The notes under the pieces are model-generated. The model saw only the letters and a program-made list of their open reading frames with translations, was not told the DNA's origin and made no database searches. A DNA stretch of 64,000 nt from Mortierella sp. BCC40632 (Eukaryota > Mortierellomycota > Mortierellomycetes > Mortierellales > Mortierellaceae), in contig WAEK01000019.1 of NCBI GenBank assembly GCA_011634665.1, forward strand, positions 1 to 64,000. The letters are read 5' to 3'. The position numbers and the translations under genes were made by a program. This document shows positions 53,617 through 60,236 of this stretch, in pieces. How positions within the stretch are numbered: the first letter of the stretch is position 1; every line of letters begins with the position of its first letter.

Positions 53617-54064
53617 CCCTACTCAGCAGATTTTACATAAAGTATAGTGTTGCAAATGCCGTTGGTCTCACGATACCTTTTGCGCAAATGCTCACGCAAA
53701 AAAAAAAAAAAAAAAAAATATTGCAAGCTTGGCTTGTACTTCGCAAAGGTGGTGTGAGTGTCGTTTCAATAATATTATCCTAATGATCGCTTTTTTGCTT
53801 CTATTTGTTCGCAAGTCTTGAAAGGGAATGCTGGCAACGATTTAGTGAACATTGGTGCTTTGATAACTGAATGGCACATCTTGGATTCGAGAGAAGGTTT
53901 ATCCCTTAAACCGTAAGGTTTAATAGGCAAATTTGCCAGTCAAAAAAATGGGAGTGAAAGAGTGAAAGAGAGGGTTAGCATCCACTACTGGTTATGTTTG
54001 AGTTGGCCTGGCTTGCATCTCCGTGAATTGCCCATGAATTGCTTACCAATACGGGATAATTATT
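53617..54064. other. Intergenic between convergent genes; A tract
   Basis: An A tract of 20 bp at 53698-53718 lies near the adaptin 3' end. No gene. The region may include 3' untranslated sequence of both neighbours and the distal part of any guide RNA of the Fanzor gene. Confidence 0.5.
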
Positions 54065-54102
54065 GTCGAGCTCCACGCTCGACTTGGGGAGCAGAGCGCT
54101 CC
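54065..54102 (-). ncRNA. Two stem-loops at the 3' end of the Fanzor frame, candidate guide-RNA scaffold
   Basis: Directly after the stop codon on the minus strand, GGAGC-GCTCT-GCTCC (54102-54088) and the perfect 7-bp GTCGAGC-GTGGA-GCTCGAC (54083-54065) follow with 4 nt between. TnpB and Fanzor omega-RNAs are transcribed from just this position, overlapping or following the ORF 3' end. The structures are seen; the RNA role is inference. Confidence 0.35.
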
Positions 54103-57100
54103 TAGTTGGTTATCCGGCGCAAGAACCATGGCCATTCCATCTTGGACAACCAGTGGTGTACCGCCATTGCCATGTTGTGAGCCCCATTGATATCACGATC
54201 ACGGCCTGCATCATGCTGGACCCCCTCCTCCTGCCTTGCATACAAGATTTCTTTTCATCTCCTCTGTTTTCAAACCACAGAGGCAGCATTGTCGCGATGT
54301 CTTGAACTCGTCAACCAGGCAGACTATGATTCCCATCCCTTGTGCCTGTCATCCACAAATAAAACGATTAAATCGTTAGCTACTCTCCTCACTTTGGTCT
54401 ACACAATTGCTCATATTAATGTTCATTACCATCTGGCACAGCCTCTCCAACACAACGTATGTCCCACTCGTTCCACCGTTCAATGGTTTGAATACTCCAT
54501 CCCCAATCGCGAGGATAACCTGTCGCTTCGATGGTAAACTGGGCTTAGGCAGAGGCTCTTTCATATCTTCTGCAGGTTCGAGATTGGCAATGCTGACTGC
54601 TGTCCGCAAAATATGCGAGAGTCGCTGGTCGATCTCTGCAGCATGTTCTTGTTGTTTTCGAAACTTGAGCGTCTTGTACGCCATCGATCCATAGAAAGAT
54701 CCAAGCGATCTGTCCGCATTGAGCTTCGACAGGACATGGTCTTCCGTGCTCTTGGAGAGCTGTTTCAGTCGAGTCTCCTCAATCATCAACCGTTACTGGG
54801 ACTATCGTTTGCTCTACTGGATTGATCCCGTCTGTCTCCTTGGCGAGTTGCATTAGGTGTCTCATCCCCTGTGTGTGCCAGTTGTATGTCCCTCTGGAAA
54901 GGTGGTGGTTGGAAGCTTGGTTGGGCCGTGCACTGTCAACGATCACTGCTGTGACAAGCTCCGCTATCCCTGGGTCAACCCCAATCACCACGTAGCTATC
55001 GCCAACAAGCTGTAAAACAGTCTCTTTGTTCGCAAAGAGCTCTGTCACATACCGGATAGTGGTTCGGCCTACGTTCAGAGGATGAGCACTTGCGTTGGCT
55101 GCCTCGGCTTTGATCTTGGGCCTTTGAAACTTTTCAGTCTTTGGATCTAGAGGACGGTACGCAAGCAGCCGCAACTGATATCCGTCCGTTACCATCGTCC
55201 CTCGCAAGCAGTATTTCTGCTGTGGAGAAATCGCTGCTGGCATGCTTTTTTTTTTCTCGATCTGGCAACTTTTGGTTTTCTTCAGAATTGCAATCCTCTC
55301 CTTTGTCATCTCGACAAATTGAGTCTTTAGTTGACCATATCGTCTCTTGGCTTCTTCTCTCGTCGCCCTGAGCTACTGCCGTCGAGCTTTCTGCTCTTTT
55401 TTTCGCCCTGGCAATCTCTGGGCTGCCTCCTCGAGCTCCTCTTCCGCCATTGCAAAAAGAGTCGAAAAGACTTGGAACTTGAGACGATGAGGGCCTCCCC
55501 AACACAGGTAGTCTTGTCGTAATTGCTTCTTTTTGTCTCCCACCGACAAAGAGCCTGTAGTAGATCTCGCCTGGATGATTGGATGCCTTCGAAGATCCCT
55601 CTCTCTGGGAGCTGACTCCCTAACAGGTCCTTGATTATTCCTTGTTCCACTTTTTGTGCTCCAAATCTTGTCGAAAAATAGCGCGGACAAAATACTGTTC
55701 AGAAATGGTGAGAAATGACGTTGACTCTTTTGCAGTAGGAGCTAGTTCTAGTCGGTCCTTGATGGGCAGCTGGAAGTTGAGGACTGTGAAGACCTCGGCC
55801 TGGCTAAACGCTTCTGATATTCCTTTTTCCTCTACTGCTGCCAGCATGGCTGCTCCCTCTGTTGATTGTGCCCATCCTGGGTTCAGCCGACACACCTAGA
55901 ATATTAGGTTGAGTTAACAACTTTTTTTTTTTTTAAAAAAAAAAAAGAGCATGAACCACTTACTCGTTTGATCAACTCGGGAACAAACTCGACAAACGTT
56001 TTGCACAACATACTGTACAGATTCCGGCCAGAACTCTCAAAAAAACACTGTGGTACTTGTCCTTGTAGGTGCGACTGGAGCCGATCTCGTTGTTGTTTGA
56101 AATTGGGGCCTGCACTCTTTGCAAAGTCGTCTACTACCTCCCTGGCTAGACTCATGCCAACAGTCCCTCGCTTTGTTCTGTTTTCATAGTATAGCAGCAT
56201 TAAGAGCTGGCGGCAAAAATCCTCCGTATCTAGGATCTGTAACTTTTTTCTGCCATCCTCTTGACTCCCATTCACAGAGTACATGGCTGCAACAGTCTTG
56301 GCAACAAACCACCGTACGATGTACAGTCCAATTTTTGTCGCCTCCGAGTGGCATTTGGCGAGTGCTAGCCCGTGTCGGCAATATACTTGGCAGCTCCACT
56401 GCGCTCCTCTTTGGTTTTTGAAGGCAACCTCTCCTCCAAAACTGACGCTACTCGCCACAGAATCGGCTCGCGCTTCTGGGTAATACAGTCAGAAGTTGAG
56501 TCCAATGCTTGGTCAATTAGATTGCCAGGCGATACTCTGTTGGATGATCCTGTTCCCATTACGCTTCCTGTTCCTAGAGCCGTTTGAACTGCAAGCCTTT
56601 GATGCCTTTGCTCTCGCCAGCTTTTTTTTTGCATTGTCGTTTCGGTGGAGGATCTGGCGGTGCGTTTGCCTTTTTGCTTCACTTGCTGATGCTCCTCTCT
56701 TGATACCTTGCCACATTTGGATCAATCGAAAAAAAATGTCAGTTCTCGTATCCTTTTTATTTTTTAATTACATCAATCCAACCTGCAAAGTCGCATACAC
56801 CTTGCCTTTTGAGAATCTGCTTGTCAGAGTCGAGTCGTTCGCCCACAGGGCACTCTTGTTGTTGTATTTTCAACCCCTTGACCTTGTCTTTTGTGTGTTC
56901 GATGTTCCCTTGAGCCGTCTCGCCAGCAACACTTGGGTCGGAGACCTCCTCATCCTCTTCCTCATCGTGAGATCTTGGAAAATTTTCGATTAACCCCATG
57001 CCTCGAGGTTGGACAAGCTTAAAACTCGGCTTTGTTTGTCCCTTGACCGGTCGTTTCGTAGATCTAGGTCCACGTCATGTCGGCCCAGCGTCTTCATTTC

Positions 57101-58381
57101 GCTGTTCATCAGCAAGCAAAAATGAAAAGGGCGCTCTAGGCAATGGTTCTAAACCTAGATGACATTTTTTTTAAAAAAAAAAAAAAATAGTGGACAAGTA
57201 CCATTAGATATGAATCCCTGCAGCGTCGTAGGACTAAGGAGTCAAGTATTGAAAAAAAAATATACTCAGTCTTACTTACTTCGTGCTTTAGACTTTTCTT
57301 GCCTGATCTGAAAGTTGAGTCTGGAAAGCTCCTCGGGGAATCTCTTTGCGGCAGCCAAGACTAGGTCCAACAGGCTACTCGTCTCGGAAGGCGTGGCTGG
57401 GAGCTTGAGAGGCGTCTCTTCCGCGTCGAGAAAGATCTTGGCCGCGGCATCAAATTTATGTGGATCTGCATCGTGGCTAGCCGTGTATCCCGCCAGCAGC
57501 GCACTTGCAGTCCTTTGGTCTGCTGGTGAGCGGTTCCACAGCTTCACAAGAATATTCTGGTTCTTGGTGATACCAAATCCTTTGAGGTTGTCGCAATAAT
57601 CATTACCTGAAGTAATGGCAATCGTCTGCCACACCCCAAAGTCAGGAACCCCTAGTTTCTCTAGGGCTTGGTCGTCGATTGTATAAAGATAGAATGTGGA
57701 CCTGTTGCTGTAGTCTTGCCTGAGTACATGGACGTTAGGGATGAACAGCATGTCACTATCAGTGGTCGCGACATAGATCCGTTGGCTGCTCTCCATTGCT
57801 TCATGTCTAATACAGTTGTCGGCCTCGCCAGAGCAGACGTGAGCATGACGACCAAGAGCAACAAGGTCTTTGGCCAGCCTGTGTCGCGTGTCCATGCTGA
57901 TCTCCATTGCACCTCTCCAGGACACCATCATTTTCTTGAACGCCCGGAGTAGCCGTCGGCGCAAGTTGCGCGCCGAGCGAAGGCCGCCTTCGGGGGGTAC
58001 TCTTGTCCAGGCTGGATTGCCGCATTGAATGCGGACAGTGAGCTGGAGCACTGGCGACGGCTATCCTCCTCTCTTGGAGCGATATTTCCGGGCGACGGCC
58101 TTTTCGCTGGTGGGGAATCCGTCGATGTGTATTATCGCATCCCTTGAGAAAACGAGATCCAGCTTCTTATTGAGCGCCTTGGCGACCCAACCTGGTTCTT
58201 TGTCTGGCTTCTTGCCTCTTGAAGGCGAGCGCGGTGTGTGGAACCAAAATAGGATGGCAAGGATGTAGTGAAAAAACAAGGAGAAGAGGTCGATATGAAC
58301 AGATGGGAACTCTTTCGGATCTACAGAAGATCGTGGGATGCCTGCGTCCGTAACTTTTTTCCAGGCCTGTTTAACTCCCAT
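54102..58381 (-). pseudogene. XPG/FEN1-type nuclease joined to Fanzor (TnpB-like) nuclease, damaged
   Basis: Start MGVKQAW at 58381, the classical FEN1/XPG N terminus, with acid-bearing motifs HIDLFS, IHIDGF, GEADNC (about 57829), TTDSDML (about 57763) and SGNDYCDNLKGFGI (about 57607). A GTAAGT donor at 57291 and an acceptor near 57150 join to a basic linker (KRPVKGQTKPSF) and an acidic segment (57000-56757). The C-terminal half shows TDGYQLRLLAYRPL, RuvC-I GVDPGIAELVTAV (Asp at 54976), LSRGTYNW, an intron at 54346-54429, then VDEFKTSRQCCLCG (about 54315) and RuvC-III DRDINGAHNMAMA (about 54198), ending at 54102. These are TnpB/Fanzor hallmarks. Breaks: in-frame TGA near 57070, shifts near 58070, 57940, 56700-56450 and 54790, and an extra G in a G5 run at 54221-54225. 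Alternatively two adjacent genes. Confidence 0.75.
57283..58381 (-). pseudogene. XPG/FEN1-type nuclease module
   Basis: This is the N-terminal part of the preceding locus, given separately because it could be its own gene. Two segments, 58381-58061 and 58051-57283, share a frame but are separated by a TAG and flanking one-base shifts in a GC-rich stretch (58070-57930). All the metal-binding acid motifs expected of the XPG-N and XPG-I regions are present: HID, IDG, GEAD, TDSD and GNDY. This family cuts branched or flap DNA. A canonical GTAAGT donor immediately precedes what would otherwise be the stop at 57283, so splicing onward is favoured. Confidence 0.75.
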
Positions 58382-60236
58382 GGTCAGAAGTGAATAAAAG
58401 TGAACTTTCGAAGGTGTGAGGAAACGTGCCAGAGAAGTGGATAGAAAGTCGAAAAAAAAAAAGATAAAAAAAAGGACATCGGGAGCTCGAGGTATCAAAG
58501 CCAAATTCCGCCCCATCCACTCTCTTGCACTCTCTTACGCATCAGTGTCTATCCCGTGCTTTAGCGATTCATCAGATACTTTCATCAAAAAAAGTCGTTT
58601 GTCCTCTCTCTTTATTAATGGTGACCGAGTGAATCTTCAGCCATAGCAAGCAAAGCGAGCGACGGCTGTTAGCACAATACAATTATTAATAAATTCCGCA
58701 CGGACCACAGGTGTAATCTCAGATGAATGAGTAGACCCATTGGTTCCATGATGGTGCATTCTACCTAATGCCGGCTAGATTCTGATGGTAGATGTCAGCA
58801 CGTAGTTTGATCTGCTAATTTCTGACCATAGAGAAGGGGGGGTTGCGGTTTAAAAGACTTTCGAGAAAAAGGCTGGAAACCTCCAAAGTATGGCTAACGA
58901 GAGAAGGTTTATAGAAAAGTATTATATATTACATCTTGGTGGCTACTGTTCAGTGCAAAATATGGAATTTCCATCCTCTCTCGAAGTTCTTGTTGTGATA
59001 TTGTGGAAAAACACTTATGAAGGCTCTTTCCGTTGAGTGGGTTCCTCTAGCTCACTCCCTTACACCCCTTCCCTCTCATTTTGATTCTTTGATTGCTCGT
59101 TGCAATACAGAAATAAGTGATGAAGAGCAGGGAGAAGCAGCGGGGAAAGAAACAAATGAGAGGGAAGTGAAGGACGACATTTTTTCTCGGATGAAATGGA
59201 CAGGAGAGATAAGCATCGATCATTGGGACACTAACACGTAGTCTATCAATCAGTCCTCAGGGTATAGAGATGGACAGCTTGGAATAGCTGAAATTACAAG
59301 GTCACAAAACACGCACACACGGGCCTGTGAGCAACTTATCACGCATGTTAATTGAGACTTGAAAAATCAGCATTCGCAAGTGCTGCAGAAAGAGAGGGTG
59401 GTTTGGTCGTCCTTGCAGCAGATGGACGTCAGTTTGTTAGAGCCAAGGCAGGGCAGAGTCGCTGGGTCAAGCAAGAGGCTCAGGCACCACAGGATTGACA
59501 ATATTGATCGATCTGAGATGTCTTGTAGGTGGGTGATTTTCGCAGACTGGGGGTTACTCCATTGGAATGTATCTCAGTTTGTCTCAGGATGAATCTTATT
59601 GAACTGCCTGCAATGCTAACAGAGATAGCAGAAACGGCTGTAGGGTTGAGGGTAGTCAGACTTGCTAGCTGCATGGCGAGAGAAACATGGTGGGTACTGC
59701 CTTGTGTTGATGACAGCTGAGCTCCGGATGAGCAAGACATTCATCTTTTACTTCAGACGGACACAAGTTTCCCGACCCCGAAGGATTGTTAATAGCACGG
59801 CCAATATGACGAGGGAAAATGACATGGTGAAGTGTGTCAACCCAAACAGTAAATCCTTTTACGCTCGGTGTTCAGTCAAGGGTCAGAACAGTATGTGCTG
59901 CCATGGCGATAGCAAAATCTGGGGCGTCTCCATTGCCTGTCAATCAACTCCTGAAAACGTTCTCAAGGACTTCACTAGCGACGTTGTTTCCCATCAACAA
60001 AGCCTGTCAGATACAGGAGCTAAATTACTCTCAAAATCTACGAGGATGTGATTGAAGCCCCAAGCGCGTTGGGACAGCGGTGGGAGTACAACTGTTCAAA
60101 TGTTCCCAAGCTGCATCGCTACTTTGTGTTGCATGACTTCTCACTTTTAAGCATTTTTTTTTCTTTTTTAATGTGGTACAAGAGTAAAAATCGCCTGTGC
60201 TAAACTACATCCTCATCATCGACTCAGAGGCTTTGA
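58382..60236. other. Intergenic, no recognised gene
   Basis: Short frames occur on both strands (for example plus 59017-59241 and 59662-60051, minus 59740-59480), but none shows a known domain, and no convincing splice-linked set was found. An uncharacterised gene or pseudogene around 59.4-60.05 kb cannot be excluded. Confidence 0.45.

What the first reader, a model, noticed from the sequence alone, without database searches (positions are those of the whole stretch)
54102..58381. XPG/FEN1-type nuclease apparently fused to a Fanzor (TnpB-like) RNA-guided nuclease
One minus-strand locus carries a near-complete XPG motif set (HID, IDG, GEAD, TDSD, GNDY) followed by a full set of Fanzor landmarks (TDGYQLRLL, GVDPGI, VDEFKTS, CCLC zinc ribbon, DRDINGAHN). 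A canonical GTAAGT donor sits just before the XPG stop, and the downstream exon stays in frame through a basic linker into the Fanzor half, broken only by one TGA (about 57070). Fanzors are known eukaryotic TnpB relatives. A flap/structure-specific nuclease on the same polypeptide could process the ends made by the RuvC cut. I know of no described XPG-Fanzor fusion, but I cannot search.
Basis: partly seen in the sequence, partly recalled or inferred. Interest (0 to 1): 0.9.

Follow-up and report, generated by a model that had tools for sequence, protein, structure and literature searches.

The report
Jumping gene with two fused nucleases
This is a decayed copy of a fungal jumping gene whose better-preserved relatives appear to encode one protein joining an RNA-guided DNA cutter (Fanzor) to a DNA-end-trimming nuclease of the FEN1/EXO1 kind, a pairing that could let the element cut a site and prepare it for copying itself in.

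Summary
The XPG-then-Fanzor order is real. The window copy (53900 to about 58911, minus strand) belongs to a TIR-flanked element family in its 49.9-Mb genome. It is broken in many places, not by one TGA, and its 5' end is damaged. A 98%-identical copy on C17 gives one spliced frame of 1302-1308 aa through XPG, linker and Fanzor. The fusion does not rest on splicing alone: in two copies of another subfamily the XPG C-terminal extension, linker and Fanzor N-terminal region share one open frame. Database gene models from Benniella, Linnemannia gamsii and Mortierella join them too, and one of three from Synchytrium does in part. 38 of 61 Fanzor zinc-ribbon hits have an XPG hit upstream on the same strand; about 0.3 expected. 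Ten catalytic or gateway positions of XPG are invariant in 8 of 8 representatives, and its model matches EXO1/FEN1. Mechanism is inferred: RNA-guided cutting followed by 5'-end trimming that favours copying of the element. No transcript or biochemical evidence. No report of such a fusion found. New variant of a known kind.

The parts
53900..53913 (.). 3' terminal inverted repeat, outer 14 bp (+ strand TATCCCTTAAACCG), ending in the terminal TA
   Evidence: Exact 14-mer found 15 + 16 times in the genome, 0 for the reversed control; homology with sister copies ends here
53914..54101 (-). 3' non-coding stretch with palindromic subterminal repeats; where a guide RNA would be expected by analogy with known Fanzors (inference)
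   Evidence: Same stretch of the C17 copy folds with z -2.52, 2 of 200 shuffles as low; weak, and includes the terminal-repeat hairpin
54102..54345 (-). Exon 5: Fanzor zinc ribbon and last RuvC motif (VDEFKTS, CCLC, DRDINGAHN), frame-shifted in this copy
   Evidence: PF07282 hit at 54232-54348, 23.6 bits, below cut-off here; C17 copy 31.0 bits, above; exon limits from C17
54430..55895 (-). Exon 4: TDGYQLRLL, RuvC-I GVDPGI and the central RuvC region; several frame breaks
   Evidence: Frames; open for 507 aa in C17; 38 own-genome hits
55964..56706 (-). Exon 3: Fanzor N-terminal half; frame breaks
   Evidence: 36 own-genome hits with a 194-aa piece
56801..57154 (-). Exon 2: charged linker in frame with XPG after splicing; holds the TGA at 57077-57075 (alternative 3' limit 56783)
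57155..57279 (-). Predicted intron 1 between the XPG exon and the linker
   Evidence: GTAAGT donor, CTAG acceptor, 125 nt in C17; same limits in the window
57280..58381 (-). Exon 1: XPG/FEN1-type nuclease; holds a TAG at 58063-58061
   Evidence: profile, residue and fold evidence from relatives
58382..58887 (-). 5' non-coding part of the element shared with sister copies
58888..58911 (-). Damaged remains of the 5' terminal repeat
   Evidence: Comparison with the ends of the C17, C9, C10 and C5 copies

Best explanation
The locus is a decayed copy of a TIR-flanked, TA-ended transposon family that encodes one fused protein: an N-terminal XPG/FEN1/EXO1-type 5' nuclease, a charged linker and a C-terminal Fanzor. 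Shown by sequence: the order, the in-frame joining in relatives, conserved XPG active-site residues, the Fanzor motif set, terminal repeats and many copies. Inferred: the Fanzor half, guided by RNA from the element's 3' end, cuts the matching site that lacks the element; the tethered XPG half then trims 5' ends or flaps at the break and leaves 3' tails, which steers repair towards copying the element from an occupied chromatid. I put about 0.9 on the fused protein and about 0.4 on this division of labour; the number given is for the whole.
For: Fusion: 1302/1308-aa spliced frame in C17; L053 open for 1038 aa from within XPG into RuvC after two predicted introns are removed; junction in single open frames of 395 and 402 aa (read; 6e-55 against P0002); database gene models. 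Linkage: 38 of 61. Active XPG: profile match to RAD2 3.3e-14 and FEN1 6.7e-14, 10 positions invariant in 8 of 8, fold match to EXO1 4.0e-08 and FEN1 1.3e-07. Fanzor: defining motif in 4 of 4 subfamilies tested, zinc ribbon over the Pfam cut-off. Mobility: nine elements with both ends. A published Fanzor from S. punctatus leaves 5' overhangs, and its authors consider copying of the element and help in trans (PMC10432273, passages).
Against: The window copy is broken. C17 itself reads about 30 residues of exon 3 in another frame than its sisters (78% amino-acid against 94-98% identity), so it may not work either; L053 has its XPG start in another frame and L054 has stops after the linker. No transcript. 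Codon-position bias in the linker is not significant (E: 7, 8, 15, p = 0.15; A against B: 21, 21, 24). P0001, a Lunasporangiospora model on a 2458-bp contig, starts at an internal methionine. 23 of 61 zinc-ribbon hits have no detected XPG; 3 of 5 looked at show none. P0006 has Ala in place of the Asp of the IDG motif. The Fanzor half found no Fanzor in the PDB, and its structure prediction failed. No guide RNA, target motif or cleavage was tested.
Confidence: 0.5

Rival explanations
1. The fusion is real, but the XPG half acts elsewhere: on excision or replication intermediates of the element, or on the 5' end of the guide RNA or transcript, and not on the ends made by the Fanzor cut.
For: FEN1-type nucleases cut many branched substrates (general knowledge); the element has palindromic ends and no transposase was found inside it.
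Against: Nothing here separates this from the best explanation; tethering to the cutter fits action at the break most simply (inference).
Confidence: 0.3
2. Two neighbouring genes of one transposon, translated separately, with the in-frame joins produced by my choice of splice sites.
For: XPG frames end in a stop soon after the junction in A and C; P0001 was modelled as a Fanzor-only protein; each predicted splice has a one-in-three chance of keeping the frame.
Against: Single open frames across the junction in C1 and C7 copies; gene models P0002-P0004 join the halves; conserved linker residues precede the first methionine of exon 2 in C17.
Confidence: 0.06
3. The XPG half no longer cuts in the fusion and serves for DNA binding or regulation.
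For: P0006 has lost one catalytic Asp.
Against: All listed catalytic and gateway positions kept in 8 of 8 representatives that share 23-30% identity with the first.
Confidence: 0.06
4. Chance neighbours or an assembly artefact.
For: The window copy taken alone is broken.
Against: Same order, strand and spacing at 38 of 61 hits against about 0.3 expected, within shared terminal repeats, and in other species.
Confidence: 0.01

Closest known systems
Fanzor1 RNA-guided nucleases in transposons (PMC3627910, section 7 and passages; PMC10432273, passages)
   Same: C-terminal motif D-X(125,275)-[TS][TS]-X-X-[C4]-X(5,50)-RD, zinc ribbon, carriage by elements with TIRs and terminal TA, some without a transposase
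   Different: Here an XPG/FEN1 nuclease is fused at the N-terminus; the passages and section seen describe none. PGv-1 there carries a separate GIY-YIG protein, not a fusion
XPG/RAD2, FEN1 and EXO1 5' nucleases
   Same: Profile match, invariant carboxylates and gateway Lys/Arg, fold
   Different: Host enzymes of this family act in repair and replication (general knowledge); here the domain sits on a transposon's RNA-guided nuclease, at 13-17% identity to the solved structures
Non-autonomous Tc1/mariner elements
   Same: TIRs, terminal TA, and in subfamily C ends beginning TACAGT
   Different: No transposase found inside; no empty site to prove TA duplication
'Fanzor flap endonuclease homologs (Fendons)' named in a virus preprint (PMC11071296, passages)
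   Same: The phrase puts Fanzor and flap endonuclease together
   Different: One sentence, no architecture given in the passages seen; whether a fusion is meant cannot be told

Membership tests
Fanzor1 | Motif D-X(125,275)-[TS][TS]-X-X-[C4 zinc finger]-X(5,50)-RD (PMC3627910) | tested here: met
   4 of 4 subfamilies tested (A, C, D, E); spacings about 202, 225, 260 and 171, counted across exons set side by side for C, D and E. My pattern required one CxxC; the A copies printed have only one Cys at the second pair
Fanzor1 | Zinc ribbon PF07282 | tested here: met
   Over the cut-off in C, D and E copies and C17 (31.0 bits); the window copy itself is below it (23.6 bits)
Fanzor1 | Position in the Fanzor1 clade of a tree | not tested
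   No named Fanzor1 sequence was used; PDB searches found none
Fanzor1 | Guide-RNA-dependent DNA cleavage | not testable with these tools
   Needs biochemistry
XPG/FEN1/EXO1 nuclease family | Conserved catalytic carboxylates and gateway Lys/Arg | tested here: met
   D31, D87, K94, R101, E186, D188, D208, D210, D261 and G2 invariant in 8 of 8; P0006, outside that set, lacks the second Asp. Correspondence to FEN1 numbering is recalled
XPG/FEN1/EXO1 nuclease family | Overall fold | tested here: met
   Model pLDDT 72.7, pTM 0.70; 54 PDB matches at E <= 0.001; the 50 rows listed are FEN1, EXO1, RAD2/XPG, GEN1 and T5 nuclease entries (one an excision-repair complex); TM about 0.35-0.54
XPG/FEN1/EXO1 nuclease family | Pfam XPG_I over its cut-off | tested here: inconclusive
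   16.7-23.4 bits against 24.9 in most single proteins scanned; two own-genome D copies reach 24.9 with their neighbours
Tc1/mariner element | TIRs with TA target duplication | tested here: inconclusive
   TIRs met; TA present at both ends, no empty site seen
Tc1/mariner element | DDE transposase encoded inside | tested here: not met
   No listed DDE_3 hit (list cut short; 151 matches) and none of 36 DDE_1 hits lies inside the nine elements with both ends; at most a non-autonomous member

The most novel reading that the evidence does not exclude
A self-resecting RNA-guided homing nuclease: in fungi, possibly of two phyla, a Fanzor is fused to an EXO1/FEN1-like 5' nuclease, so that one protein cuts the empty site under RNA guidance and prepares the ends for copying of the element. 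It would be a natural counterpart of engineered nuclease-exonuclease fusions.
Probability: 0.35. Interest if true: 0.9.

Novelty: new variant of a known kind. Interest (0 to 1): 0.8.

Why it matters
How Fanzors help their transposons in eukaryotes is open; the work seen here offers copying at the cut site only as a possibility (PMC10432273, passages). A conserved, catalytically complete end-processing nuclease on the same polypeptide makes a concrete, testable prediction about what follows the cut, and offers a naturally evolved cutter-plus-trimmer for genome engineering to examine.

Tried and rejected
Pfam on the window's broken fragments gave no XPG or Fanzor domain; homology had to come from better-kept relatives. 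The protein search with the 1302-aa C17 model gave no hit. The 497-aa search admits only proteins up to about 870 aa by the tool's length rule, so full-length fusions could not appear in it. Viral contig scans with three single proteins found no relatives; such scans reach close relatives only. A structure of the Fanzor half failed (pLDDT 38.9) and was not used. The codon-position test of the linker was not significant. RNA folding of the 3' end was weak (z -2.52 and -1.74). No target-adjacent motif could be read: the bases before the TA differ among the few distinct insertions. A linked transposase was sought: DDE_3 pieces beside a Fanzor cluster on C5 and near a lone TIR on C8 are outside any element with both ends. 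Literature: Fanzor with XPG none; with Mortierella none; with flap endonuclease two, one seen in passages, one as a listing; TnpB with XPG one, seen as a listing; Academ with XPG none; XPG with transposon, fungi, nuclease and transposase two, listing only; a broader Fanzor query listed 12 of 28; Fanzor since 2024 listed 30 of 69. PMC10711439 has 'fused' three times by the count; those places were not read. Papers outside the held library were not searched.
Full report
What is in the window. Pfam on eight of the broken fragments gives neither domain. With the exon limits of a close relative and the frame carried through the window's own exon lengths, the five exons hold 1, 1, 2, 11 and 4 stops. 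The window copy is a pseudogene, not a gene broken by one TGA.

It is a mobile element. The window is C19:1-64000 of an assembly of 49.9 Mb in 62 contigs. Its 4.8-kb DNA recurs at 95-98% identity on C17, C9, C10 (two places), C5 and C8, with long matches of 68-72% elsewhere. Homology ends at 53900 in the six sister loci that reach that end, and at 58886-58887 in the five that reach the other (L035 and L036 are parts of one copy). Better-kept copies begin TATCCCTTAAACCGTTAG and end ACGGTTTAAGGGATA. The exact 14-mer occurs 15 + 16 times, 0 for the reversed control. Pairing those hits by eye gives nine elements with both ends: C5, C9, C10 and C17 at 4.6-5.1 kb (subfamily A), and C1, C3, C7, C15 and C27 at 7.1-7.2 kb (subfamily B). 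Seven A copies have seven different 3' flanks; C1 with C7, and C3 with C11, share flanks and look like segmental duplications. The terminal TA, without a longer shared flank, fits TA target duplication, but no empty site was seen. A distant subfamily (C; L041) has other terminal repeats, 37 bp at 89%, beginning TACAGT.

One protein or two. In C17 four GT-AG introns give one open frame of 1302 or 1308 aa from ATG to stop. Against this copy: about 30 residues of exon 3 are read in another frame than in its sisters. In subfamily E, L053 is open for 1038 aa from within XPG into RuvC after two predicted introns are removed, though its XPG start lies in another frame; L054 has an intact XPG exon but stops after the linker. 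In C25c the frame of the XPG C-terminal part runs through the intron position into the linker without a stop (L043 2297-2899). The strongest evidence needs no splicing: a query over the junction of the Benniella protein finds C1:564939-565712 (395-aa open frame) and C7:573625-574398 (402 aa), each covering query residues 4-276 of 278 without a stop. Their sequence shows XPG C-terminal extension, linker and Fanzor N-terminal region in one frame, and the C7 frame aligns with P0002 at 6e-55. The XPG core and that C-terminal extension share one exon in A and C (aligned). So each link is seen without splicing, but in different subfamilies.

Other species. An E-subfamily query gave 6 database hits: Benniella sp. 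(P0002), Linnemannia gamsii (P0003), Mortierella sp. NVP85 (P0004) and three of Synchytrium endobioticum (P0005-P0007). After their XPG part P0002, P0003 and P0004 match the Fanzor N-terminal region of subfamily D at 6e-28, 2e-11 and 1e-29. P0007 matches a RuvC piece at 1e-8. P0006 matches the Fanzor half only weakly (0.006), and P0005 was matched on XPG only, so in Synchytrium the fusion rests on P0007. These are computed gene models. A Fanzor-half query gave one hit, P0001 of Lunasporangiospora selenospora, 69% identical, a partial model that starts at an internal methionine on a 2458-bp contig. The host is probably one of the Mortierellaceae; that is inference from these hits.

Linkage. For the count I pooled by hand 87 XPG-like hits, leaving out rows that repeated a locus as I saw it (30 of 44 rows, 47 of 69, 5 of 56, 5 of 18); some loci are still present twice. 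Of 61 PF07282 hits, 38 have one of these upstream on the same strand within 6 kb: 37 at 2.5-3.9 kb and one at 0.4 kb; two XPG hits serve two ribbons each, so 36 XPG hits are used. About 0.3 is expected under uniform placement. Of the 23 unpaired ribbons I looked at 5: C12 and C15 show XPG remnants, C5:2.06M and C6:0.68M show none in frames of 80 aa or more, and C5:2.91M shows none but a DDE_3 piece and another Fanzor end upstream. 44 of the 87 XPG-like hits have no ribbon downstream; these include strong host-type hits, weak fragments, and places such as C25 where the ribbon was missed although other Fanzor parts are present.

The XPG half. A profile of 8 representatives matches RAD2 at 3.3e-14 over positions 1-267 of 293 and FEN1 at 6.7e-14. 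G2, D31, D87, K94, R101, E186, D188, D208, D210 and D261 (C17 numbering) are invariant in 8 of 8; from recall these are FEN1 G2, D34, D86, K93, R100, E158, E160, D179, D181 and D233. In the wider set of 12, which has truncated rows, P0006 has Ala at the D87 position. The model (pLDDT 72.7) matches EXO1 on 5'-recessed DNA first (4.0e-08), then FEN1 (1.3e-07), TM about 0.5. The ranking does not tell EXO1-like from FEN1-like function.

The Fanzor half. The motif that defines Fanzor and TnpB in PMC3627910 (passages) is present in 4 of 4 subfamilies tested; A copies have only one cysteine at the second zinc pair. The zinc ribbon passes the Pfam cut-off in C, D and E copies and in C17, not in the window copy. 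NCBIfam's TnpB model matches with its last part at 1.2e-07, below its cut-off. PDB searches found no Fanzor, and structure prediction failed. Assignment to Fanzor1 therefore rests on motif, domain and context.

How it may work (inference). Published SpuFz1 leaves 5' overhangs, and its authors consider that Fanzor cutting at the sister chromosome could promote propagation of transposons, or that Fanzors help other transposons in trans (PMC10432273, passages). A tethered 5' nuclease with EXO1/FEN1 chemistry could trim those ends or flaps, discourage simple rejoining and expose 3' tails for copying from the occupied chromatid. No transposase was found inside the element; the genome holds many Tc1-type pieces (151 DDE_3 matches) that could move its ends in trans. 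None of these steps was shown.

Known or new. No held paper has both Fanzor and XPG. Fanzor with flap endonuclease gave two: one with a single phrase on 'Fanzor flap endonuclease homologs' in viruses, one seen as a listing. PMC3627910 describes Fanzor1 in mariner elements, one beside a separate GIY-YIG protein (section 7); 'XPG' does not occur in it. 'Fusion' does not occur in PMC10711439 or PMC10432273. On these searches the fusion looks undescribed: a new variant of Fanzor, not a new class.

Noticed in passing
window 58912-58898 and 53902-53888: A 15-bp direct repeat (ATAAACCTTCTCTCG) lies at both ends of the window copy, whose 5' terminal repeat is damaged; it may record imperfect repair at the insertion.
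   Followed up: partly
C1, C3, C7, C15, C27 elements of 7.1-7.2 kb; L051 minus strand 948-2027: Subfamily B carries about 2 kb more upstream of XPG, with a further gene (open frame of 360 aa in C7) of unknown function and a hydrophobic C-terminal stretch.
   Followed up: partly
G000:C12:1433204-1433291: Two facing copies of the 14-bp terminal repeat only 88 bp apart: a possible miniature derivative.
   Followed up: no
L065 (G000:C5:2902300-2906000): End of one Fanzor, a Tc1-type DDE_3 fragment and the N-terminal part of another Fanzor in a row, with no XPG seen.
   Followed up: partly
L066 (G000:C8:1301900-1304100): A Tc1-type transposase frame (302 aa) starts about 450 bp outside a lone A/B-type terminal repeat; its DDE part resembles the C5 fragment. 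A candidate for mobilising the family, not shown.
   Followed up: partly
L044 (G000:C27:222200-228800): An XPG relative with all ten positions kept but no Fanzor recognised in the forward frames downstream.
   Followed up: partly
introns of L030, L041, L053 and window copy: Several predicted introns hold long poly-T runs of variable length, which could also cause length errors in an assembly.
   Followed up: no
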